This document shows positions 11,941-63,181 of a stretch of 64,000 nt of DNA, one piece after another. The notes below the pieces were generated by a model. The model saw only the letters and a program-made list of their open reading frames with translations. It searched no databases and was not told where the DNA came from. Position 1 is the stretch's first letter; every line of letters starts with the position of its first letter. The DNA comes from Nymphaea colorata (lineage: Eukaryota; Streptophyta; Magnoliopsida; Nymphaeales; Nymphaeaceae). The DNA is taken from assembly GCF_008831285.2 (NCBI RefSeq), contig NC_045139.1, forward strand, positions 10,690,704-10,754,703. The letters are read 5' to 3'. A program made the translations under genes and the position numbers.

Positions 11941-13801
11941 CAGCAACCAAAACTTAGCTGTTTGCGCCTCTCGCAGAGCATTCACGAATAATTGAACAAT
12001 TGCCCAACTGAACACAAACAAAGCTTGGATTGCAACCTGCCACTATTCTTGCAACTCCGTTGGCTACGGCCTCATTAGAAACCAATACCGGAGACTGGAG
12101 ACAACCCCACTGGTTCCTAAGATGACTTTCATGAATCATAGTATCGTTTAGAAAATGTACGTCGACTTTAAGTTGATTCAACAAAATGGAAAAATCATGT
12201 CTGCCATGCAGTTTACTGTGCCAGACCCCTGATGTTTCAAGATGGAAAAATAATTGGTTTTTTGCTTGGGCAACAGAATTTAGCAGGGTGTCTCCCCATC
12301 AAAGATGAGGCCAGCCAGCTAAAATACAAAATCATTCCACGTCTCCTGCATGCTTTTTGCCCTGCAGAGGAGGGAAATATAAAACAACCCGACCTAACCC
12401 CACACTGGGCTCATGCCATGATCCGATGGATCCCAACCTATCCCATAGCAATCTTGACGGATCCCAACCTGCCTCCTAGCAATCCTGCTTCTTAGCTTTT
12501 TTTGGCTTGAAGTCTAAACTGGTAGGAGGTAGGTTAGGATTCATTGGACCATGAGCCAGAGTCCGATGAGAGAGTGGGTCAGGTCATTATCAGCAGAAGC
12601 CTAGTTTGCAGCTAGACCTTGATGCAAACTTTAGCAAACCTTGGTTGAAGAAACTCTCTTTTATATAGCTTCCGAATTTGCTTTAATGCCACCTTCGCTT
12701 AACCTCTAGAAATGAGAAAAGCTCAACGACACCACTCCTTTCGTTTTGAAGTTCTTCTAAGAAATCATTCTGCTCTAACACCAATTTGTCACTGGACTTC
12801 CATTTTAAGCTAATTTCGGCTCATGGAGTGTTGAAGGTTGCTCCAAGCCATTGAAAGTGCATCTTGTGGAGAATTTTGTTGCAACTGATCTGGAAGAAGA
12901 AGGTAATCAAGAAGAGGCTGCCAATCAGCCTATGAAAGGAGCCCAAGTATGTCTTAGTAAAGAAGAAATGTAGAAGCAAGAGGAGATCAAGAGGGACATG
13001 CAATAGAAAAAGCTTTCTAGTTAAGTTTCTAATGCTTAAAGCTTCTTATTTTAATCTTCAAATGCAAAGTATGTCTGAAGGAGTGAATCCAGTGGAAGCC
13101 ACAAAATTTTGTGACTTCAACCTTGAATTCAATTACCACATATATGGTTTGCAGAGAACAGAGAAAATGAGAGAAATAGATATTGTGGAAGGATGGGCAA
13201 CAATGTTAATTCCTTGCCCCAGTCCTAATTCCTTATATTTTTAAGAATAATTACAAAGTGGACAAAAAATGTGCCTGTTTCATCAATGAAATACAGCATG
13301 GCATAAATGAAAACAGTTTGCATATGCATCAATTTAAAACTTGACCTTATATTAAGCATGTTTGAATATCGATTCAGATCCAAACACGATACATTGTCTT
13401 AACATTCATCCTCAAGTTGTACATGATTGTACACTGTCCAGAAATTGTTCAAATTTGTTGAACAAATAAGCAATTTGACCACCTCCCATACAAATTATGG
13501 CTTGATTTCTCTATCCTCCTTCTGCTTAATAAAATGTTGATATATCTCAATGTTCTAAGTAAGTGTAGTTGTGGTCATGAGCAAGTGTAAAGAAATATTA
13601 ATGGCCATTTGGTTATCATGCGTTAATAGAGATTGAGTTGCATCTTCTCTCAAATCCCCTGATGCGTGTTCAACCCATGCAACCTCAAAAATCCTTGCCG
13701 CCATGGATATACTTGACTGCGATCTGATTCAAGCTTTTGCTCGATAATACCCAATGATTCCCTCTCATCAGGATCTCCAACCCAATCTGCTAATGTATAA
13801 G

Positions 13802-17419: not shown

Positions 17420-17883
17420 ATTCATTAAAAATACATAAGGGAGTCATTGAAAATACACCAAAAGTTTTTAAATAAGTCGATTGTTAATGTCATAAGTCGA
17501 TGAATATATATATTCAGGCGAAGTCGAACCCCCAATACCCGATTAGGGCCAGCCCAACCTGGTGAATTTTTAAATGGAGCCTGCTCAAGAGCCAAGAAAT
17601 CAGCCCAAGCCCAGCCCATAACTGGTCAAGTACTTAGTACTTAACTATATAACTATATAGATGGTTAAAAAAAGGTGCAAACTAATACTAGATAAATAAA
17701 ATAAGTAAAAAAACAAAAAAAGAAGAAAGTTGAACTCAACAGACCTCCTTCTGTCCCCAATTTTTTTTCTCAATGTTCGATAGAAGAATAGACTTTCACA
17801 TCCACACCCTCCTTCTTTTAAGGGATACGCATCCATTGTGGAAGACGTCAGGTCAAGTGTTGAGAATTGTCTATGATACCGAT

Positions 17884-18060
17884 TGTCACGAACCGACCCA
17901 CTCTTATTGTTATATCAGGCTTAGTTGGGTCTTGGTCAAGTGGATCCCAACTCAATAACAGTTTCAGATCTTTCCCGAAAAAAAACTAGAACAATCTATC
18001 ACTCAACCGACCTCTTTATAAGTCTTATCAATTTAAGATACAATACTAAACTCTTATATC
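17884..18060. repeat. TRIM-like LTR fragment
   Basis: After a degenerate GATACC (primer-binding complement) the sequence reads GACCCACTC, GTGGATCCCAACTCAATAACAGTTTC and CCCGAAAAAAAACTAGAACAA in the same order as the LTR at 31040-31228. It appears to be a diverged solo copy. Confidence 0.5.
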
Positions 18061-18999: not shown

Positions 19000-19441
19000 T
19001 ACGGCTGCACAACAACTCGAACTCACCTGTAAAAACCCAACTCGTTGCTTGAGTTTGAATTTATGCTCGGCACGTTAAACTAGTCGAGTAACCCGACTGG
19101 TTTAAACTTGGCTCGGCTCGACTACATAAATGTGTCATGAATGAGATATTCTGTTACTAAGTTTTCCTTCAAGGGATATATGGATGCAGAATATGTTCAT
19201 TCTTCTTTCTTTGGATTTTCTGTTAGATTGTTGTTCATGGTTGAATTAGTTAAAAAAAGGCAGTTAAACTGAGTTAAAATAAACTAGACATGTCAAATTA
19301 ACAAAAAGGAGTTAAGAGTTAAGCGAGTCGAGCCTGAGCTTGATGCTGTATAGTTGAGTCAAGCTTGAGCCTGTTCAATGGAGCTCGACTTGAGTTCAAG
19401 TCAAGCTCATGCTAGATCGACTAGGCTCGTGTGCAGGCCTA
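19000..19441. mobile_element. Non-autonomous hAT-type element, 442 bp
   Basis: The termini TACGGCTGCACAAC and GTGTGCAGGCCTA are inverted. The flanks CTTGGGAG (18992-18999) and CTTGGGAA (19442-19449) match at 7 of 8 bases, the 8-bp duplication expected for hAT. The interior is rich in CTCGAGC/GCTCGAC words and non-coding. Related copies lie at 8488, 20751, 27885, 58980 and 60082. Confidence 0.75.
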
Positions 19442-29284: not shown

Positions 29285-30450
29285 CATCACCCCACACCCC
29301 TCATTTTAGGGGAAAAAGTTTATACTTACATTTTTGAAAATTTTTAATTCAACTCGCGTAACAATTCTAAAAAATATTATATAACCCCTATATAAAAATT
29401 TGAAAATAATCATTTGGCCTCTCCTAAGTTAGCAATATGTATCTACTAATGGAGAATATGAAATATTTAGTTTCTTAGAATATGATATTCAAAAACATTT
29501 AGGATGTGAGATTTGTAGAATATATCATGTTCGCATGTGAGATGATCACAGGCCTCTACATTTAAGATCTAGGCTTCAAATAAAGCTTTCTTTTATTCTT
29601 CCACACTTTGAGGCCTCACTGAAGAAGCATCCTACAATTTTCACCACGTTATTATGCATCTCAACAAATTAAAATTATCATGGGCATTGACATCTTATGC
29701 ATATTGGTGGCAAATTTTGTCACTTGTCATCAAATAATAATTTATATACTCCACCATCGCAGATGACATGCCATAACAAACAATATATTCTGCAACCATA
29801 GACCTTAAAAACAACGAAAATCAAAGACCAAGCAACAAACTTACTTTGTCCATCATGACCACAACCAAATTAAATTCCATCCATGAGTTATTTGGTTTGG
29901 AATTAGACCTTTTAATTCGAAAGATTTCAATAAGACTTTTGATTTCCTGCTTAATTTCAACATTTTTTATTTTACATATTAACGCCCTAAAAAAATTGCT
30001 CCTTCGGCCCCCAAGAATCCAAAATTGTTGAATTAGTCACCCTCGACCCAAAATTTCTAGCTCTGCCATTGAACCTCGGTAACATGACACTGATATGTTC
30101 TTGGTGGTTCAAGAATTGCATGAACGTATATCGCCTAAGATAAACCTTATTTGTGTGGAGTAGAATGAAGGGTAGCTCTTAGTATAAACTGGTATTAGTT
30201 TATCTATTACCTACGTGCTAGAGAAAATCAAAATGAAGGTTTTGAAGAGATAAAAAGGAATCGCTTATTTAAGTTAAAAGGCACGTTCATCAAGGTCTCA
30301 CCTCATCCTTTGCATGTTTTCAAGCGCGTTTGGCAACAAGAGTATCAATAATGAATCTGCTCAATCTTTAGGACCAATTCATGGAACACTTTGTGAGTGT
30401 TTCTATTGTAAATTCCCTTTAAATGCAATAAGCTAAGTTTAGTGGAATGC

Positions 30451-30808
30451 TAGGCTATAATGACTTGACAACTCTCAAGCTTGGCCTCCTAATCCGGTGT
30501 ATCCCAACCGGTCCTCTAACAGTTTCAATTTCAACCCAAAAAAGGTTAACCAAGACAGTAATGTTAGGTTATAATGACCCAACCTACTTTCAAGCTTAGC
30601 CCCCTAATCTGGCGTATCCCAACTTGTCACCTAGCAGTTTCAATTTCAACCCGAAAAAAGGCTAATGAAGCAGGACAATAATGTTAGGTTATAATGACCT
30701 ACCCACTTTCAAGCTTGGCCCCCTAATCTGGCGTATCCCAACCTGTCACCAAGTAGTTTTGATTTCAACTTGAAAAAAGGCTAATGAACCAGGACAGTAA
30801 TGTTAGGT
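30451..30808. repeat. Three tandem LTR-derived units, about 114-120 bp each
   Basis: Units start TATAATGAC at 30456, 30570 and 30690, each preceded by TAGGT (TAGGC for the first). Each carries TCAAGCTT, CCTAATC(C/T)GG and GTATCCCAAC and ends in (G)ACARTAATGT. They match the first part of the LTR at 30809-30962 and abut it directly. Confidence 0.85.
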
Positions 30809-31228
30809 TATAATGACCCAACCCACTTTCAAGCTTGGCCCTCCTAATATCCCAACCTGTTCCCTATTAGTTTTAATTTTAATCCCCAAAAGACTAAAGA
30901 ATAAGGACAACCAAAAACTTAACAACCTCCTTTATAAATTTCTAAAATTTTGGAATGTTACAATCTACTTCCTTTAAGGCACATACGTCCGCGCGTGTGG
31001 AAACTAAGGTCCGAGTGTTGAACCATGCTTTGATACCACTATAATGACCTGACCCACTCTCGAGGTCGGGCCTTTGGTCTGGTGGATCCCAATGTGTTCC
31101 TTAACAATTTCGATTATAACCCGAAAAAAGATAGAAACCAGAACAACCACTAACTTAACAATGCACTTTGTAAGTCCTCCAAGTTCCCTCACAATGGTCA
31201 ATACATGAGTAAATTTTTGGGTGTTACA
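30809..31228 (-). mobile_element. Complete TRIM retroelement
   Basis: Two direct LTR copies (30809-30962, 154 bp; 31040-31228, 189 bp) flank a 77-bp interior. On the minus strand each LTR starts TGTAACA and ends near CATTATA. The interior begins next to TGGTATCAAAGC (31027-31038), an initiator-Met tRNA primer-binding site, and ends with a purine tract AAAGGAAG before the 3' LTR. TAGGT occurs on both sides (30804-30808 and 31229-31233), a perfect 5-bp target duplication. With no coding capacity it is a terminal-repeat retrotransposon in miniature. The shorter 3' LTR has internal deletions. Confidence 0.82.
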
Positions 31229-31365
31229 TAGGTATTAAAGGAAAACATACCATGCCTTTTTTCATTTTTATGCTTAACAACTAGTACATGTTACTTTTTG
31301 TAAAACATTGGAAAAACACATCCAAAATGGGGGATTTTAGTTGCACTAGCCTTAGATAGAGATAC

Positions 31366-31640
31366 ACTAAACCTTTAAATTTTGATGCTTAAATGCTTCT
31401 TTTGTAATCTAACCTTACTGATATGATCTTAATACGAGTTGATGCAAAAGCATATAGGATCATTTGTTAGATTTTAATAGCATTTTTTTAATAAGAAAAA
31501 ATGTGTACTTTTGTCATAGCATCAGCATTTTGATAATAAAAAAATCCACTTTTTCATAAAAACAACTTGATCAAAACATATTTTATACCAAAACAGTTTT
31601 TATAAATACATTTAGATGTTTGTATTTTATTTGAAATAAT
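31366..31640. repeat. AT-rich MITE-like repeat, TAATCTAACCTTA family
   Basis: It shares TTTGTAATCTAACCTTACTGATATGATCTTAA-like sequence (in pieces) and GATGCAAAAGCATA words with 9524-9800 and the inverted copy at 62819-63181. Ends are not fixed. Confidence 0.45.
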
Positions 31641-33353
31641 GTTTTAACAAAAAAATTAAAGGGTTTGATTTTATCCCAACCGTCAGTTTTCTATCAATTC
31701 CTCTTTATGCATATATGTAAAGGAAAGATTGATCATGCCGCCCTCCATTTATCTTGCTTTCTAGTGCTTCTGGTAATTTCTAAGCGCTGCAAATGTTGCA
31801 TTTTAATTTTTATAAAATTCAACCATGTAAATAGATGCAAAATGTTAAAATTTATAAAACTTCAAAAAGGCTGATGCAAGTCGAATATTAATGTAAATCT
31901 CTTTTACAAGGTTTCAAAATTAAGCTTATGGTGTCTGGTTTATCAGCTCAAAGACTACTAGTTTATTGAATTGTCAATTTGTTTTTTCATTCTTTTATAT
32001 ATATATATATATATATATACTTCTCACAAAATTCTAGTCTTGCATGAGATGCATATCTAAGGGTGAATTTGATAACGGGGTGAAATATTGTTGCGAATGG
32101 AAAATTGTACGGGTGAGTCCCACCCGCTGTTCCTTCCCTCCCTCGTGTGTGGGGTAGAAATCCTGATTTTGCTGTCGTTGAAGACTGATTTCGCTGTCGG
32201 ACGGAGAAGAACAACTCAGAGGATCGCTTTTCCCTCCCCTGCTCCGTCACCTATTTTTCATCTTCTCTCATTCTCCCATACCTTCACCAAACTTTTTGGT
32301 GGATTTTCCAAAAATTTAGCTCTGCTATCTTTGTTCTTTTTGTTTTCTGGTTTCCTGTCCGTGCGTGCGTGACTTGCCTTCCTTTTATCTGTTCTCTTTT
32401 TTTTGTTGGTTTGTTTTCTGCCTCCTATTTCACACGGTTCTGCAGACTTGCCTTCCTTTTATCTGAAACTGTGTTCATCAGAAGCATGATTTTGTTGTGC
32501 ATTTGTCAGCTTTTTGTATTTCATTGATTCTTCGGAACCAGAAGCCTTCTCCCAGAAAAGACCTTCCCAAGTTGGGAAACTGTGAATCACAAAAGATTGA
32601 GTCAATTGTCTGTAGAAAAATATGAGATTAAGATACTAAGATAAAGCAAAATATATCAGATAATCAATTTAGAAGAAAGGTTCAACAGTGCTGGACAGTG
32701 CAAGAGCCAACAAGATGGCTGTTTATATGTACAACAGTTGCAACGTGAATAGAAAAGCATAACAGATATCACACAACAGTTGCAGATATCCTCACCCCTC
32801 GCTTGCTTCTGTAGAAACTTTCATATGTACAGTGAATTTATGCAACAGAATTATCACCATATGAATGAAACCTGTCCCAAGCCTACCTTTATATTAAAAC
32901 CGTTAAGATTTAACACAAATGGGTTTGACGTAGTGGTTCTTTCTCAATGGAAAACAGGTAAATACTTACGGTTGGATGTTTATGAGCATTTCTTCCTGGA
33001 AATAAGTTTCTTGTATCAAAGTAAGAAATGTATTTTTGAAAATCTGGAAATATGTTTCTTAAAAATCAAACACAGAAATATGTTTCTGGAAATATATTTC
33101 TCAGTTATCACAACACACTCGTTAAAATGAGGATCGGAAATATTTTTTTCTTTCCCTTTTTTTAGGAAATATATTTCTGAAATATATTTCCAATTCCATA
33201 ATTCTATGACATCAAACGGCCCCTCAATGATGAGAAAAATTACAAGGTGAAATCAATCTTTACTGGTTGAAAGTTAGTTGGTGAAATAGACACACACAGT
33301 GGGGACGCTACCTTTATGTGAAATAAGATGGTTAGGTGTGCAGGGCAGTAGGG

Positions 33354-33984: not shown

Positions 33985-34594
33985 CTTACAATTGGAAGAA
34001 GGTCCAGTAGATCCTCTAGGATGGAATAGAGAAGATCACACAACAGATTTCCTAACCCTTGTGTCTTATGACGGTTTTACCTATCATAAACTGGATATAG
34101 ATTTTCTCTAGTTTCTACCCATATCGTTCATGGTAAATGAGATGAAACTGACCCATATTTATTAGATCACCTTAAATTGTGTCTATTTACAAAAATAGCT
34201 TGTAATGTACGACAATCAACATATATATACGCTGGACTATGGGAAATTTACTCTCTTCCACCCTTTTACCAATAGAACTTTTCCCATGAATTTTCCCCTC
34301 CGAAGAAACAATCAAACACAACCAAAGGGAGACATTATCTCTCACCCTGCCATCTTTTGTACAGACAAAGCTTTGTCTCCCATCGATTTCAAGCGCGGGC
34401 CTGATCTCTGCAATACCAACTTTTCCGTTTCTTCGCCGTCACCAAACACGTTACCCTGCCAATTTACCAGCGGTTCCTTTCTTTAAGTATGAAGAAGCCG
34501 ATGGCCTGATCAAATCTACAGCAGAAACTCAAGCTCTCTGTCTCCGCCGTTTCCGCTTCCAAGGAGAACTACCAACCTCGTCTTTCTTCCTCAT

Positions 34595-37500
34595 ATGGCC
34601 AGATTTCTCTCTCTTTTCCTCTCTCTGCTTTCCTTGACGGATTCCGGTCGGCACCGGCACCATGAGGAGGCAGGTAGGAAGCCTGGGCTCTTCATCTTTG
34701 GGGACTCGACTGTGGACTGTGGAACCAACAACTTCATCAACACCACCGACGCCTTCAGGGCCAACTACTTCCCTTACGGCTACAATGGCTATTTCCGGCG
34801 ATCGACCGGCCGGTTCTCCGACGGCAGAGTGTCTCCTGATTTCATCGGTACGACATCGAATCTGACCGCGTAAAATTTATGTGCATGTCTCCGCTGGTCC
34901 TTGGGAGGGTTGACTCGTAGGCGAGCCGATTTCTTCGTGATCGGACACTATAATTTCTCCATGAAATGAAAGTTTTCGAGAAAAGGCATTCAACTTTTGG
35001 TGGTGTGACAAAATCACTACTCCTTGAAGCCTGAATTTATTTTATTTCTCATCGTTTTTTTATTGTAATTTAATCAGTTATAAAATTTAAAAAAATCAAA
35101 TCTAGGCGTGTTCAGACTTGGATGAGGGTGTTAAATGGATCATCCAACGATTTGGATCTAGATCTATTTGTCTCTTTCTTAAAGAATGATACGATTTGGA
35201 TCTGATAGATCTATTTTGTCTAAGATGCTGTAGTCGTCACTGTTTTTGTCAGCTGAGTACGCGAAGCTGCCGTTGATCCCGCCGTTCTTGCAACCGTCGG
35301 CTGATTTTTCACATGGAGCCAACTTTGCATCGGGAGGTGCAGGGATTCTCTCAACTACCAATCGAGGCTTGGTAAAAAGATTTTTTTTTTTTTTACTTTT
35401 GTCAATATTTTGTTTGTGCCAACTCTTTTTGACAGTGACATGGGATCTTTGAGAATATTGGGGATCTCAAATCTGCATATTTTAGTCTGGCTTCAAATAT
35501 GAGGTTTTTAACTAAATTAGGAATTTTAAATTCTTTTTTTTTTTTGTTTCACCTAGTGGTAAAATCCAGTATTTGTTTATTTTTGTAAGTTTCACGTTAA
35601 AAGAATCTTAGATCAGCCTTAGATTTAAGATCCGAGACTACTCTTATGGTTTTTATATATTTTTTTCTCAAAACTATCTTCTTTTTCTAATGTTGGTAAT
35701 GCTTGAAAATATAGTCTCATTTTACTCACGTTCAGGGGGCGAAGGTAAGGGAGTGCCATGGCCTCCCTTCAAATTTTAAAAATTTCAAAAATTTACCTGT
35801 AAATTTTATTAATTTTATTTTAACTTATATAAAAAAATACATATGATTAAAATTTTGAAAGCATAGTACAAAAAATTCCTAGCTCCACCCTTGCTCGTGT
35901 TACATTTGTCAAAGTTTCTGTTTCAATATATATATATGGAAAGCATTTTTATTCCCTTTTTTTATAATTAATTTTTCAAGTCCTGAAGCGCTTCACAAGT
36001 GTGTGCTCAGAGGGGGGCTTGTATGAGCCCTGAATCAAGTTTTAAAAAAAAGTTACATGTAAATTTTAGAAAATTTCACTTGTTATATATAAAAGTTTTG
36101 AAAATGATATTCCAGCCCCTGTCAAAATTAAGAAGCTTTAATTCGGCCCTCCTCATGAAAAATTTCTGGCTCTGCCCCTGCGTGTGTTTAGCGCAAAGTG
36201 TCTGGGATGTACCACCATATTGATGTCATTTCTCTTCATGTATGGCCTTGAAACATAGGACGGACAGGAATAAAAGACTAAGACCTCTATCAGACTAGCT
36301 ATTCTATGCTTCTTGAAGCTTATTTTCATTTGGATTTTCCCTTTTGATTCATGGTCATCCATTTAGATCTCTAGATAATTACAAATTGATGGGAAGGCAG
36401 TGTTTCTTGGACTCAACATGACCTTATTTGGATATCAAAACAGTAACAACTGGCGCCACCTTCAAGCCGCCTAGCCGGGTTTCCGGAGTCATTACCGACG
36501 CTTTTCCCTTAATTAGCTTGTTTGTTTTCCATGATATAATTAACCTGAGTTGATTAAGCTACTCAGGTGGTGGATTTGAAGACCCAATTGAAGCAATTTA
36601 GGAGCCTCAAAGAGAACATCACCAAGCAGATGCAGCTGGGTTCGGTTGAGGCCCAGACATGGTTGGGGAGCTCGGTTTACTACTTTAGTGTTGGGAACAA
36701 TGACTTGTTTGCAGGCTACCTGCTCAACAATGAGACCCTAGAGAAGTACACCATTGATGAGTTCCGGCAGCTGCTGGTTGAAGAGCTCTCTACCGCGATT
36801 CAGGTGCCTTTCTACTTCATCATCAGTTAGCAAAACTTGGTTGATGAATAGGGATGTCAACGGATCGGATTCGGATTGGATACACCTTTAACCATATCCG
36901 CTTTTTTGGATATTCATATATTTGGATTCTGATTCAGATTCGAATTCGAATAAAGCAAAGTCATATCCGAATCCGAATCCGAAATCCGATTTTACAGTCC
37001 GAATCCGATCCGAATCTGATTTTTATATTTATATCCGAATCCGAATCTGAATTTTGGACCGGATTTTGTTTTTTTTTTCAAGTATTAGATAGAGGATATT
37101 TGTCTAAAAATGAATTCGATCTGAATCCGAATCCGATCCGATATTCATGTATATCCGAATCCGAATCTGTTCGGATGTCATTTATTAAATCTGAATCCGA
37201 TCCGATTTCTTAATCGGATATTAATTTTTTATCCATATCCGATTTTTCGGATTGGTCGAATATCCAATTCAAATCGGATATATTGACATCCCTATTGATG
37301 AAGATCTATAACTGCATTCACAATTATATTGCTAATGAGCAACCTATGCTCTATATGATATATAAACGAGCAGAACATGTGAGATATTTCAAAAATAATT
37401 GCATCAAACGGGTTCCGAATTTTGGTTCAAGAATGAAAATTTCATAATCATAATTTCTTCTCAAACTAGGATGGAATCAAAATTCTGGGTTTCAATTTCC

Positions 37501-39899
37501 TAATTCTGGGAAACAAAATACCTTGTTTGTTTAATAATTTCTATTTCTTGTAAATGAGTATTTTGATTCTAAAATTTCATGATTGTGGGTACATCAAGCA
37601 CCTCAGGGATTGGGATTGAATATGAGATCAAAATGTTTAAAACAATTTTGGGTGTGAAAAAAAAGGATTAGTTTCGGATGTATAAATTGATCACATTTTG
37701 GTTCAAGAAATAACATTCCATCAGATTCGGATTTGGCTTGGCTTTAAGTAAACATCTAACCACATTTGGATTAAGTTTTAGATTTAGTTTCATATACATA
37801 TATATCCTATATCGAATATGTATTCATTTTAGATGAGAACATCTTCCTTTATCACAGTTTGTGGTGTCTTCAAGTTTCACTTACTTTTACAAATTTTTAA
37901 TAAAGTTTCACCCACACACACACATATATATTACCTGAAGTAAAAAACTGTTTAATGAATATTTTAAAAAATTTTCCATTTTTTTGGTAAGAAAAACAAT
38001 AGAAAAATCAAAATGACTTTTCTAATAATATTCTCAACTTTTTGAATGGCCAAGATTTTCATTGAGGCTGTTCTCAGACAACAAACTTCCCTCATTAATA
38101 CCCGTGAAAACATACTGATTACTAGGGTTGTGGCAGGCTTTGCAAGAAGAAGGTGCAAGAAAATTCATTATAACATCATTGGTAGATTTGGGTTGTCTGC
38201 CATCAGTTAGAACTTTCTACAATGGCTCCTGCTATGAGATCGCCACCAACTTCACTTTCGCCTACAACTTAGCTATGGAGCAATCACTGGCGAATCTCGC
38301 CTCCGCCATTGACATCAGCTATGTTTGGTTCGATCTCACTGGGTTTCTTAGAATGAGGATGAACAACCCAGAAAAATATGGTATGTATTACGCCTAATAG
38401 TCTTATGAACATTCCTAATAATTTCATTGGGATTCGTGTTTAACTCTTGAAATGGTCACCGTCACGTCTCAATGCGCTTTTTCTCTGGACCATAAAAGGC
38501 CCTAAAACATGCACTGTAAACCCAGATAAAAGGCACAGAGGGGTAGCAACCTTTCTTAAAGGCGGTGGAATGAACCACTCACCCTTAAAAACAAGAGAAA
38601 AAAAAAATCTTATAAACATTCATTTTTATGAATACAAGTTCCTTTTTTTCTTGATACAATGCCATTAATTAAATTTTGCATATTCATGTCTATAAATTGT
38701 GAAACGTGCAATGCCCATCTTTTTATGAAATAACTCTAACAATAGTTATAGGTTTAACCATATAGTTTCTACATCATGCATGTAAATTGGGTTACATAGT
38801 GACTTTCTCTGTGCCACGGAGCAGCGAGTTGCAGGGATCAGGAATATTATTTTAGAAGACATGCAGCAATTGAAAACATTATTTGGCAACAATCAATTTA
38901 TCGAACTCACTAGGTTTATGGCTGTTTTAAGACATAGATGAACAGTAGTATACTCATTAATTAGAATGTTGTGCATATATTATTTGTAGTTCAGATGAAT
39001 AGCAGTCACATGAATCAAATTAATGATCAGACTTTTACCAGTATGCCAGTCTGACTAACTATGTTATCCTTCTTAGGATGCATGATATTTATACCAACTG
39101 TTATGAAATGAGAACAACAAACTGTTTCATGAATCTTGTCCAAAAATTGAGGTAGATTTATGAAATTGTATATGTTAAAGTTTTTTATATGAATCTGCTC
39201 CAATCTTTATGATAAATTCAGAAATACAGTTTCCATTTTCTTTGCCAAACAATGTATTTTGATTCTTAGGCTCATTCTTGAATCACAATTCCAGAATTAT
39301 GGTTCTATCCTAAGGGCAGAATTACGATTTCAGAATTTTAGAAAATTTTTTCATCTTTCTTTATGACTCATGTCATAAAAAATTTAATTCATCAATTCTA
39401 CAATCAAAATTCCATGCTTCAAGTACAAAGGGAAACTAGAATTAGAATCTTTATTCCAATTCCAGTTTGAGGTAGAACTTTGTTTCTAGAATTTTAATTG
39501 AAATTCGAAGCTATCAAACACCCCCTTATAAGGACTCACTCTTAACCAGGTTTACTTTATGGGCACCTTGATTATCAAAAGCATGAGTGTGATTTTTCTG
39601 GAAATTCTTAAGAATTAATCTTTCTCGGAAAATTAGGTTTGACGCATCCTATCGACGCGTGTTGCGGAAGCGGACTTCTCAGAGGTTTGGACACGTGCGG
39701 CGGGAAGAACGGCAGCAGCTACAGCTTGTGTTGGGATCCATGGACACATGTGTGGTTTGATGGGAGCCATTCCCCAGAAGTAGTTCATAAACAGATAGCA
39801 GAAACTTTGTGGGAAGGCAAGGACTCAACTGTTAGACCCACATCAGCTAAGATGCTCTTCCATGAAGATCAGAACATGTTGCCATATGAGAGTCAGTAA
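34595..39899 (+). CDS. GDSL esterase/lipase (SGNH hydrolase), secreted
   Basis: Five exons join in frame to 371 residues: 34595-34847, 35253-35371, 36567-36803, 38137-38380 and 39637-39899. All introns are GT-AG; the five-exon layout and length are typical of plant GDSL lipases. An N-terminal Leu-rich signal peptide precedes block [16 protein letters not shown], with nucleophile Ser38. The block II glycine lies in [10 protein letters not shown] (about 110-117), block III is GNND at 167-170, and block V is FDGSH with Asp326 and His329 in the order D-x-x-H. The full catalytic set is therefore present. The block I motif reads CGTNN where GNN is usual, a mild departure. Such enzymes hydrolyse ester bonds of lipids, cutin or acylated metabolites outside the cell; the substrate cannot be told. 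AATAAA signals lie at 39968-39978. The introns hold at least three MITEs. Confidence 0.95.
35733..35893. mobile_element. 161-bp hAT-like MITE in GDSL intron 2
   Basis: The left CAGGGGGCGAAGG and right CTAGCTCCACCCTTG ends are inverted; flanks CTCACGTT and CTCGTGTT agree at 6 of 8 bases. The AT-rich interior contains AAATTTTAAAAATTTCAAAAATTT-like runs in pieces. Confidence 0.65.
36008..36180. mobile_element. 173-bp hAT-like MITE in GDSL intron 2
   Basis: It begins CAGAGGGGGGCTTG and ends CTGGCTCTGCCCCTG; flanks TGTGTGCT and CGTGTGTT agree at 6 of 8 bases. The right half is nearly identical to 11880-11935. Confidence 0.65.
36849..37294. mobile_element. 446-bp hAT-type MITE in GDSL intron 3
   Basis: TTGATGAA is repeated perfectly at 36841-36848 and 37295-37302. 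The 12-bp termini TAGGGATGTCAA and TTGACATCCCTA are perfect inverted repeats. The interior is built of ATCCGAATCCGAA-type 6-bp units in both orientations, AT-rich and non-coding. It lies 45 bp after the exon-3 donor. Confidence 0.9.
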
Positions 39900-49962: not shown

Positions 49963-52935
49963 TTGGCCGGTTACTTCTCTTTTGCTAATGTGACGCAGAT
50001 TTTCCAGATAGTAGCTGTTTACATGCCAAACAACCCCATACTTCGTCGTAATAGCTTTATTGAGTTGGCATTTTTTCTTAATGCTCAAGACATTCCTACT
50101 TTGATCTATGGGGACTTTAATGTTATGCGCAATAGCCTCAACAAAACGGATAAGCCCCCGAATGCTCAAGCTTGTTCTGATTTTAACAGATTTATTCCAT
50201 CTTCCAATCTTAATGAGCTATGTGACAACCAAAGTAACTACACCTGGTCCAATAGACGCCAAGGTAATGATATAATCTTTTGCAAACTTGACTGGGGTTT
50301 AACTAATTTTACTTGGGAAAGACAGACAAACGTTGTTTGTGCTCTTTCAACGTCCCCCAGAGCCACTTTAGACCACAAGGTGATCATGGTGAAGATGGAC
50401 AACCCTCTTTAGCAGAATAGAAACACTAGACGGTTCAGAATCATAAAACCTTGGATGATGACTAGGGATGGCTGCCAGGTTATTAGTGAAGCATGAAGGG
50501 CCGAGGTGCAGGGGTGTCCCATGCTGCGGGTCCTTCGAAAACTTGAGGTGGTCAAGTGCGGTCTAATATCCTGGAACAAAAATTCTTTTGGGCGTATTAA
50601 GGACAACATAAAGTCACTTCAATGTCACCTCAGGCAAGCACAAGCTAATAGTGAGGCTGGGGATGGGTGGGCAACGAGGGAAGATGAATCCATCAAGAGA
50701 GAGCTGGAAAAGGCTTTACACTTGGAAGAGATCATGTGGAAGGAAAAGTCGAGAGTCAAGTGGTTGTTAGATGGGGACAAAAACACGTGATTCATTCAAA
50801 CTATTGCCAACAATAGATCTAGAAAGAACCGCATTGCTGATCTTGAGGTGGCTGGACAAACTCTCTCTTCTATCAATAGCGTTCTGGAAGCAGCTAGCAA
50901 CCATTTTGAATGTTTCCTTAATGAGGCTACAACTAATGGTGAAATCCCTAGTGATATCGGGCAAGGAGAATTTGTCTCTGCGGAAGAGAACGCCTCCCTC
51001 CTGCAACCAGTCACCTATGTGGAGGTCAAGGAAGCTGTTATGTCTCTAGACAAGGACAGTGCTCCGGGGCCTGATGGTTGTCCGTTTTTTTTTTTATCAA
51101 ATCATGTAGGAGGAGATTTGCCAGGATATTTGGAGAGTGGTGGACAATTTTTTCAAATTTGGGAAGTTGGTGCGTAGTTTGAACAAGACCTACTTGATGC
51201 TCATCCCTAAGAAAAGAGGAGGTTCTTGGATCGATGATTTTAGACCCATTGCCCTATGCAATAGTCTTTACAAGGTGATTGTTAAAGTAATGGTGCAGTG
51301 CATGAAGAACATCCTTCCTCGCTTGATCGGGATAACTCAAGGGGCTTTTGTCAAATCTAGGGTGATCCACGATCAGATTGCCATGGCCAATGAGTTGGTT
51401 CACCTTTTTGATAGTAGGAAAGAGGTCGTAGCCTATCTCAAACTCGATATCTCTAAAGCGTATGATAGAGTGTCTTGGAGATTCATGCAGAACAACCTCC
51501 TTTATCTAGGATTTCACCCATCCTGGGTGGAAAAAATCATGCTTTGTGTCTTCTCTGCCTCCTATACAGTGTTGATTAATGGTGATGTAGAGAGAAACTT
51601 CACAGCTGCGAGGGGTGTTAGGCAAGGCGATCTGATGTCCACCTACCTTTTCATACTTGTAATGGAAATGGCGGCCAGATATCTTAAGGGACAAATTATG
51701 AAGAGGGCCATTCTCCTACCATACTCAATTAGAGTTATTCCTGATGTTCACTGCTTAATGTTTGCTGATGATCTTCTCCTCTTTAGCGTTGCTATAGTTA
51801 AATCGATAACCAATATCAAGAGGGTCCTGAGCCAACTTGAAGAAAGAATAAGATTCATGATCAATAACTCTAAGTCTTTTCTTTTCACTTTCAACGTGGA
51901 GACTCCCCTTGAGCAAAGGTTAGCCAACCTTGGAGGCTGGCAGACAGTTAAGCTACCTTTGGATTACTTGGGTGTTCCTCTCTTTACGGGAAACTTAAAT
52001 TCAAACTTTTGCGCAGGTTTGAATGCTAAATTCTAGAAGAAGATGACACCTTGGAAAACCCAACTCCTATCCTATGCAGGACGTGCTTGTCTTATCACCC
52101 ATAACCTAAGCTCCATGGGTAACTTTTGGATGCAATCTTTCTCTCTCCCCAACGAAGTACTAAAGAAGCTGGAGCGATGCATGGTTGGATTCCTGTGGGC
52201 TGATACTGAGGTTAACCGGCACATCCACCAAATAGCCTGGAATTCTTTGTGCAAGCCCAAGGCAGAAGGTGGCATTGGTTTATGCCTTCTTGAGGAAGTG
52301 AATATTTCCCTCCTAGCGAGCAAACTTTGCTCTTCTTTTAATAATAACTCTCTTTTTGCACAATGGATAAGAGCTACATATCTCAAATCCAACAGTTTGT
52401 GGACTGTGCGTAAACCTTGGAGGGGATCTTGGGCTTGGAAAAGCTTATGAAAAGGTTGGAATAAGATAGCAAATTAGGTGAGGTGGAAGATTGGAGATGG
52501 TAATTCTGTTTTCTTCTGGTCCGACTGGTGGCATGACGAAATTCTAGTGAATTCAATTAGTGGAGAGGAGTATGGTGTCATAGTTGATCAATTGAAACTT
52601 TCTGTTGCCGAAGTTAGGAGTTTGGGTGAGGCTAGACTAGCACTGCCAAGCAAGGCATTAGTAGGTGTATCCAACTTGCTAATGAGACTGACAAACTTGT
52701 TAGTAGTGCTACTAAACTCAAGGATTTTTCCTCTAGATCGAGTTGGGATGCCATAAGACAGAATGGTAGTCAGGAAGGTTGGCGAAAGCGTATTTGGAAC
52801 AATCACATCCCAGCTAGAGCAAATTGGATCACCTACATCGCCAACCATATGAGACTGACCAGTCAAGACAGATTACAAAGACATGGAGTTCATTTGGCAA
52901 ACAGATGCCATTTATGCAAAAGAGAGGATGGCAGA
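49963..52935 (+). pseudogene. LINE ORF2 pseudogene (endonuclease, RT, zf-RVT)
   Basis: The visible endonuclease part starts late (VAVYMPNNPILRR, IYGDFNVMRN, LDHKVIMV); the N-terminal WNIRGL-type block is missing. RT follows with KDSAPGPDG, LNKTYLMLIPKK, DDFRPIALCN, LDISKAYDRVSW, ARGVRQGDLMSTYLF and the catalytic FADD (51761-51772). The tail has WKIGDGNSVFFWSDWW and a zf-RVT CHLCKRE. Stops interrupt near 50410, 50494, 50788, 52034, 52448 and 52475. Frameshifts occur near 51090-51140 (at a run of ten T) and 52690-52740. It cannot encode an active enzyme. Confidence 0.88.
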
Positions 52936-58979: not shown

Positions 58980-59464
58980 GACAACCAGTCGGGCTCCACT
59001 CCAAGACTGCTCGTACAAACTCAACTCGAGCTCGACTCGTACTCATTCTTAAATTTATACTGAAAATGTCATGAGTCGTGTTTGAGTTGTAAGAACTCGA
59101 ATTGTTTAAACTCGTTTTGAGTTGACTAAATAATGTGTCATGAATGAGAGGTTTCTATTGCTAAGTTTCTCTTTAGGAGATATTTGGATGCAGAATATAT
59201 GCATTCTTTCTCTGGATTTTCTGTTAGATGGTCATTTATATTTGAGTTAATTAAAAAAATCAGTTAAACAAGTTAACGAGTTAAACAAGTTAAAAGACAC
59301 GATTGAGGCTAAATCAATAAAAAAAAGTTAAACGAGTTTAGAAAGTCAAGCTTGAGCACAACTTTATCTCATCGAGTCAAGCTCGAGCCTATTCTATGGA
59401 GCTCAACTCGAGTTTGAGGGAACCTCAAGCTCGAGCTTCGATTCGGTTCATGTGCAGCCCTAAT
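58980..59464. repeat. hAT-like TCGAGCT-rich element
   Basis: CTCGAGCTCGACTCG words, a middle very similar to 19140-19240 (GATATTTGGATGCAGAATAT) and a right end CATGTGCAGCCCTA. The left end is unclear. Confidence 0.55.
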
Positions 59465-60240: not shown

Positions 60241-60762
60241 ATGTGTTTATTTTTTTTTAATCGTTGGATTTCATTTTTTACATTGTTTTCTCTCTCTTCA
60301 TTCACTTTCTACTCTAAAGCCCTGTCTCCTCCAACTCCCAACCAGCAGGCTGTAGCACCAGCCACCAGGTACCCTTCTCATCAGTCATCTCCCTCTACTC
60401 TTCCCTTCTCTCTCTCTCTCTCTCTCTCTCTCCAGATCTTTCCCTCTCTCAATCTAAAAAACTCTCATGGGTGAGGGTGAAACCCTTGCCCAATCGCCCT
60501 TGCGAGGGTTTCCGAAAGCCCTCAGTTGGGTGAGGGTGGAACCAAATGGGTTTCTGAAAGCCCTCGGTCCGGCTAGAGCGAACCCTAGCCCTATAACAAT
60601 AAGTTCAACTCATTGACTAAGGAAAGCATTTTGCGGCCTTTTGATAAGATGAGAATGAAAAAAAATGGCAGGCATATGGAGATCGAAATTCCATTGACAT
60701 CTGATGAAAAAGTAGAGGATATCCAATTTCATATATCAGCTCATTTGGATGATGCTCTCAAC

Positions 60763-61090
60763 CTAGTTACAAATTGGGTATGGGTGCAAAACCCTGCTAC
60801 AAAAGCTAACCTGGTTTGGGGTGCAAAAGTCGAAGATTCAAAATCTTGTGATATTTAATCCTTTCTCTCAAACTAGTTACAAGTTGGGTATGGGTGCAAA
60901 GCTTGTTAAGAAAACCTGGTTTGGGGTGTAAAAGTCGAAGATTCAAAATCTTGTGATGTTTAATCCACCCTTAGTTATGCTCTAAGCCTAGTTACAAGTT
61001 GGGTATGGGTGCAGCACCCTGTTACGAAAGGTAACCTGGTTTGGGGTGTAAAAGTCGAAGATTCAAAAACTTGTGATGTTGATCCACAGT
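60763..61090. repeat. Imperfect tandem triplication, 110-115 bp units
   Basis: Units start CTAGTTACAA at 60763, 60873 and 60988. Each contains TTGGGTATGGGTGCA, ACCTGGTTTGGGGTG and AAAAGTCGAAGATTC, then CTTGTGAT. Units 2 and 3 share changes not in unit 1 (ACAAGTTGG, GGGTGTAAAAG). Confidence 0.9.
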
Positions 61091-62816: not shown

Positions 62817-62818
62817 AA

Positions 62819-63181
62819 ATTGGTAAAAACCAGACAATTAGGTTAGGGATAAAAACCAGACCTTTAATTTTTTGTTAAAAAATTAGTTTAAATAAAATAC
62901 AAACTTCCTGATATATTTATGAAAAAAAACTATTTTGATATAAAACATGCTTTGAATCAACTTGGGTTTATGAAAAATGTTGATGCTATGGGAGCCATTC
63001 ATTTTTGCTGATTATAAAAAACCATTAAAACCCAAAAAATGATCAACTTAATATATATTTGGCATCAACTATCCTTAAGATCATATTGGTAAGGTTAGAT
63101 TTCAAAAAAAAAAAAAAACCTTAAATATCATATCTAAAGGGTCGAGTTTTTGTCCGACCTATTGGTCTGGTTTCTACCAGT
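62819..63181. mobile_element. MITE with long imperfect terminal inverted repeats
   Basis: The left arm reads TTGGTAAAAACCAGACAATT and GGATAAAAACCAGACC; the right arm inverted reads TGGTAGAAACCAGACCAATA and GGACAAAAACTCGACC. The interior holds the TAATATATATTTGGCATC / AAGGTTAGATT blocks also seen at 9524 and 31366. Both outer flanks are microsatellites, (GT)n and (AT)n. Confidence 0.6.

What the first reader, a model, noticed from the sequence alone, without database searches (positions are those of the whole stretch)
30451..31233. TRIM element whose LTR plus target duplication has been amplified in tandem
Seen: two LTR copies, a 77-bp interior with Met-tRNA primer-binding site and purine tract, and perfect TAGGT duplications make a complete TRIM (30809-31228). 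To its left lie three more head-to-tail partial LTR units, each again preceded by TAGGT/C. Known: TRIMs can form tandem arrays by unequal recombination. Here only the LTR start plus target site is amplified, with about 120-bp spacing and the remaining LTR lost. This resembles early birth of a satellite from a retroelement end.
Basis: partly seen in the sequence, partly recalled or inferred. Interest (0 to 1): 0.72.

Follow-up and report, generated by a model that had tools for sequence, protein, structure and literature searches.

The report
Old TRIM with small local duplication
A decayed miniature retrotransposon whose end, together with ten or so bases of the neighbouring host DNA, was copied a few times in a row long ago; it is real but looks like an ordinary small tandem duplication rather than a growing satellite.

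Summary
A 420-bp TRIM-like element lies on the minus strand at 30809-31228 (LTRs 30809-30962 and 31040-31228, 77-bp interior, primer-binding site one mismatch from the recalled initiator-Met motif, TAGGT on both sides). Three head-to-tail partial units lie to its left (30456-30808; TRF period 119, score 559, against at most 61 in 20 shuffles).

Each junction joins the LTR at about position 102-108 to AATGTTAGGT, which matches the host flank left of the first unit at 8 of 10 bases and the element interior at 1 of 10. So the unit is about 12 bp of host flank with the target duplication, plus the LTR end. Tandem duplication across the insertion boundary, in two or three rounds, explains it; the rest of the LTR was not lost.

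Units are only 82-90% identical, so 'early birth of a satellite' is not supported. It is not a TA-TRIM: no interior is repeated. The genome search for other arrays did not complete (10 tries). Low interest.

The parts
30446..30455 (.). Host flank AATGCTAGGC left of the first unit; the last 5 bases (TAGGC, 30451-30455) are the likely original left target duplication, one base changed
   Evidence: TRF array starts at 30446; matches the junction AATGTTAGGT at 8 of 10
30456..30569 (-). Unit 1: LTR-end copy (102 bp) plus junction GTAATGTTAGGT
   Evidence: 84% and 82.5% identical to units 2 and 3; lengths; junction
30570..30689 (-). Unit 2: LTR-end copy (108 bp) plus junction ATAATGTTAGGT
   Evidence: 90% identical to unit 3 (107 of 119)
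30690..30808 (-). Unit 3: LTR-end copy (107 bp) plus junction GTAATGTTAGGT
30804..30808 (.). TAGGT, left target duplication as now seen next to the element
30809..30962 (-). Left LTR (3' LTR of the minus-strand element), 154 bp, 35 bp shorter than the right one
   Evidence: alignment
30963..31039 (-). 77-bp interior
31027..31038 (-). Primer-binding site TGGTATCAAAGC, 11 of 12 to the recalled initiator-Met motif
30963..30975 (-). Degenerate purine tract next to the LTR (weak)
   Evidence: sequence printed
31040..31228 (-). Right LTR (5' LTR of the minus-strand element), 189 bp, the longest copy
31229..31233 (.). TAGGT, right target duplication

Best explanation
An old TRIM-like retrotransposon inserted on the minus strand at a TAGGT site. 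Later an illegitimate recombination or replication slip made a tandem duplication of about 119 bp that straddled the insertion boundary: 10-12 bp of host flank, including the target duplication, plus the adjacent 102-108 bp of the LTR. Once two copies existed, unequal exchange or slippage added two more in one or two further rounds. The array then stopped and decayed along with the element. Shown: anatomy, junction content, copy divergence. Inferred: the order of events, the type of recombination, and that growth has stopped. No function is indicated.
For: The three junctions agree in content: the LTR runs to GGACA (AGACA in unit 1), then GT or AT, then AATGTTAGGT. That 10-mer matches the host flank before unit 1 at 8 of 10, the interior before the right LTR at 1 of 10, and the 10 bases ending in the right target duplication at 5 of 10 (the TAGGT itself); 55 of 63,991 plus-strand 10-mers of the window match at 8 or more, the array's own copies included. 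TRF places the array start at 30446, inside that flank. Since the unit carries what looks like the flank and target duplication of this one insertion, it most simply formed here after insertion. Units are nearer the left LTR (K2P 0.29-0.37) than the right LTR (0.39-0.42), though for unit 1 the gap is small (0.371 against 0.393). Units 2 and 3 group in 901 of 1000 bootstraps, fitting stepwise growth.
Against: The flank match is 8 of 10, not perfect. The trees are weak: with the two window relatives added, 0 of 4 inner branches was well supported. Unit 1 moves with the columns used: split LL+LR in 604 and LR+U1 in 354 of 1000 bootstraps with 112 columns, LR+U1 in 648 and LL+LR in 251 with the first 104, which leave out the junction; the second result does not show unit 1 nearer the left LTR. 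No clear microhomology marks the first breakpoint, and the two junction bases GT/AT are unexplained. Other genomic copies could not be searched.
Confidence: 0.88

Rival explanations
1. Early stage of a satellite family seeded by the TRIM end, present as longer or more arrays elsewhere in the genome.
For: LTR- and retrotransposon-derived satellites are known in plants (PMC3648361 and PMC7004042, passages); the units have a regular spacing of 114-120 bp.
Against: About 3.4 copies, units 82-90% identical. TRF lists no other array with this unit in the window; the two other relatives found are a foldback-like fragment and a lone diverged fragment.
Confidence: 0.04
2. Repeated insertion of the same element into its own target duplication, each earlier insertion reduced to a solo LTR.
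For: Each unit is bounded by TAGGY. Multiple insertion into target duplications is a proposed route (PMC12628747, passages).
Against: Solo LTRs would be full length (154-189 bp here). The three units instead stop at about the same LTR position and carry the same extra bases before TAGGT, which independent insertions would not share.
Confidence: 0.02
3. A tandemly arrayed TRIM (TA-TRIM, LTR-interior-LTR-interior) that lost its interiors by deletion.
For: TA-TRIMs are common: 129 subfamilies in 35 of 43 genomes (PMC4717578, passages).
Against: The junction sequence matches the host flank and not the interior (8 of 10 against 1 of 10); one deletion before the copying, or three alike, would have to have ended in a flank-like sequence.
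Confidence: 0.03
4. Assembly artefact (falsely repeated sequence).
For: Short tandem arrays can be misassembled (general knowledge).
Against: The copies differ by 10-18% and have distinct indels; an artefact would give near-identical copies.
Confidence: 0.02

Closest known systems
TRIM elements (for example Wukong, SMART, Katydid, Br families)
   Same: Short element, two direct LTRs, short interior with primer-binding site, 5-bp target duplications. Wukong: 532 bp, 230-bp LTRs, 72-bp interior with PBS and PPT, mostly 5-bp target duplications (PMC4528315, passages).
   Different: Membership of a named family by sequence was not tested (no plant repeat library at hand); LTRs are strongly diverged.
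TA-TRIMs, Cassandra arrays and tandem LTR retrotransposons
   Same: Local tandem arrangement of an element.
   Different: Those alternate LTRs and interiors (PMC4717578 passages; PMC11899658 abstract and discussion). Here no interior is repeated and flank-like host sequence is part of the unit.
LTR-derived satellites such as Sobo (potato) and CRM1TR/CRM4TR (maize)
   Same: Unit made from part of an LTR plus other DNA. Sobo is said to be similar to LTRs, satellite repeat and genomic DNA; illegitimate recombination is proposed for the CRM arrays (PMC3648361, passages).
   Different: Those are long arrays in or near centromeres (same passages); this has three extra copies, decayed, and its chromosomal place is unknown.

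Membership tests
TRIM | Under 1 kb with two direct LTRs | tested here: met
   420 bp; LTRs 154 and 189 bp, alignable end to end, 67-79% identical depending on the alignment
TRIM | Primer-binding site next to the 5' LTR | tested here: met
   11 of 12 to the recalled initiator-Met motif, the one such site on both strands of the window
TRIM | Polypurine tract next to the 3' LTR | tested here: inconclusive
   AAAGGAAGTAGAT, interrupted
TRIM | Target duplication of 4-6 bp | tested here: met
   TAGGT on both sides, 5 of 5; next to the outermost unit it reads TAGGC
TRIM | Repeated family in the genome | tested here: inconclusive
   Two diverged relatives in the window, E 4.9e-15 and 6.8e-8 for a search of the window; genome search unanswered in 10 tries
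TRIM | No coding capacity for mobility proteins | tested here: met
   420 bp in all; the one stop-to-stop frame of at least 75 aa overlapping it is 76 aa. That frame was not searched against Pfam.
TA-TRIM | At least three LTRs alternating with at least two interiors | tested here: not met
   One interior; unit junctions match the interior at 1 of 10
Satellite DNA | Long, homogenised tandem array | tested here: not met
   At this locus about 3.4 copies, units 82-90% identical; other loci could not be searched

The most novel reading that the evidence does not exclude
The ~119-bp unit (LTR end plus AATGTTAGGT) escaped this locus and forms arrays elsewhere in the genome, which would make this the founder locus of a satellite, with the host-flank tag marking its birthplace.
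Probability: 0.03. Interest if true: 0.5.

Novelty: new member of a known kind. Interest (0 to 1): 0.13.

Why it matters
Little by itself. It is a clear small example of a tandem duplication that straddles a retrotransposon insertion boundary, so that the target duplication marks where the repeat unit came from. Such marked junctions could be used to count how often transposon ends seed tandem repeats.

Tried and rejected
Rfam at gathering thresholds on the whole window gave 0 matches, and at E up to 1 on 30400-31300 gave 0, so nothing supports a retrozyme hammerhead or a 5S-bearing Cassandra LTR here. ARAGORN found 0 tRNA genes in the window. A scan of viral contigs for an LTR-end pattern gave 0; plant-like DNA is not expected there, so this says little. 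A seven-row tree was unresolved. Five-row bootstraps were unstable for unit 1.

The age is only indicative: K2P between the LTRs is 0.454, about 17 or 32 million years at recalled rates of 1.3e-8 or 7e-9 per site per year. The alignment is gappy and the host unknown, so I do not lean on it. The 102-108 bp lengths of the LTR part come; the positions printed (101, 107, 106 for the units) are one lower because my script counted from zero.

Full report
What is there. The window holds a TRIM-like element on the minus strand at 30809-31228. On the plus strand it runs TATAATGACC...GGTGTTACA, so TGTAACACC...GGTCATTATA in its own reading, flanked by TAGGT on both sides. The interior is 77 bp. One base after the LTR it has, in the element's reading, TGGTATCAAAGC, one mismatch from the initiator-Met primer-binding motif (recalled); no other place on either strand of the window comes within one mismatch. 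The purine tract is degenerate.

The array. Three partial copies of the LTR end lie to the left at 30456, 30570 and 30690; successive starts, the left LTR included, are 114, 120 and 119 bp apart. TRF reports 30446-30848, period 119, 3.4 copies, score 559. The highest score over 20 dinucleotide shuffles of the window was 61, so chance is excluded. In gapped pairwise alignments the units are 82-90% identical to each other, 84-86% to the left LTR and 76-81% to the right LTR; the two LTRs are 79% identical (118 of 149). In the five-sequence alignment the LTRs differ at 50 of 153 columns, so LTR identity is 67-79% depending on the alignment.

What the unit is. In the three junctions the LTR part is 102, 108 and 107 bp long and ends in GGACA (AGACA in unit 1). 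Two bases (GT or AT) follow, then AATGTTAGGT, then the next LTR end. The 10-mer AATGTTAGGT matches the host flank before unit 1 (AATGCTAGGC) at 8 of 10, the sequence before the right LTR (the interior) at 1 of 10, and the 10 bases ending in the right target duplication at 5 of 10, which is the TAGGT alone. On the plus strand of the window 55 of 63,991 10-mers match at 8 or more, the array's own copies included. So the repeated unit is best read as host flank plus target duplication plus LTR end, formed at this locus after the insertion.

Mechanism (inferred). The simplest history is insertion at TAGGT, one tandem duplication across the left boundary, and one or two further rounds by unequal exchange or slippage. 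Units 2 and 3 are the closest pair (107 of 119 identical; grouped in 901 of 1000 bootstraps). By K2P the units are nearer the left LTR (0.371, 0.293, 0.312) than the right one (0.393, 0.410, 0.415), as the model asks. Against this, when the junction columns are left out unit 1 groups with the right LTR in 648 of 1000 bootstraps, and a tree with the two window relatives resolves nothing (0 of 4 inner branches supported). The first breakpoint shows no clear microhomology by eye. The rest of the LTR was not lost; it lay outside the duplicated segment and is still in the left LTR, which is 35 bp shorter than the right one. The divergence between copies says that the growth is old.

Surroundings. 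A profile of the five copies finds two further relatives in the window: 12590-12478 on the minus strand (E 4.9e-15) and 17890-18031 on the plus strand (E 6.8e-8), and weaker pieces at 12417-12457 (E 0.0017) and 12456-12483 (E 0.094) on the plus strand. The plus-strand one has TGATACC just to its left, where the primer-binding site would be, and aligns into the interior, which supports a real, old element family. The other sits in a foldback-like arrangement (no control was run for it). TRF lists no array of this unit at either place. The host is plant-like by inference: of nine open frames tested, one has an X8 domain and one a reverse transcriptase domain, seven gave nothing. No organism was identified.

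Known context. TRIM tandem arrays that repeat LTR plus interior are common in plants: 129 subfamilies in 35 of 43 genomes (PMC4717578, passages); Wukong (PMC4528315, passages); Cassandra (PMC7215508, two passages); larger LTR elements (PMC11899658, abstract and discussion). LTR-derived satellites are also known, one of them similar to both LTRs and genomic DNA (PMC3648361, passages), and satellites that expanded from short arrays inside retrotransposons (PMC7004042, passages). Reviews name multiple insertion at target duplications (PMC12628747, passages) and repair at target-duplication regions (PMC9659126, passages) as routes to tandem copies. In six paper searches (25 of 1,750, 12 of 12, 20 of 28, 15 of 22, 10 of 10 and 12 of 82 papers listed) I did not see this exact form, part of a TRIM LTR plus its own target duplication as the unit, in the listings or in the passages I read of eight papers. 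That is no proof that it is unreported, and as a local event it needs no new mechanism.

Limits. The search of the host genome did not complete (10 calls), so uniqueness of the array is untested beyond the 64 kb. That is the one result that could raise the interest of this finding.

Noticed in passing
12378-12590 (minus strand reading): A relative of the same LTR end in a foldback-like arrangement: a forward copy at 12590-12478 faces an inverted, more diverged partner, with a small inner repeat around 12417-12483.
   Followed up: partly
17850-18060: Lone diverged relative of the LTR with a primer-binding-site-like TGATACC just to its left; no second LTR was found by the profile.
   Followed up: partly
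60755-61087: Second short tandem array in the window, period about 105-120, TRF scores 399 and 340.
   Followed up: no
51137-52036: Open frame with a reverse transcriptase domain (RVT_1, E 6.6e-30), probably a LINE fragment.
   Followed up: no
19090-19441 and 59094-59462: Two dispersed repeat copies, 72% identical over 374 columns; family unknown.
   Followed up: no
31397-31699 and 62818-63110: Inverted dispersed repeat pair, 71% identical over 319 columns; one copy lies just right of the TRIM but does not overlap it.
   Followed up: no
34493-39899: Frames that by eye resemble a GDSL-type esterase gene in pieces ([14 protein letters not shown]); the three pieces tested gave no Pfam match at E 0.001, so this is only a lead.
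   Followed up: partly
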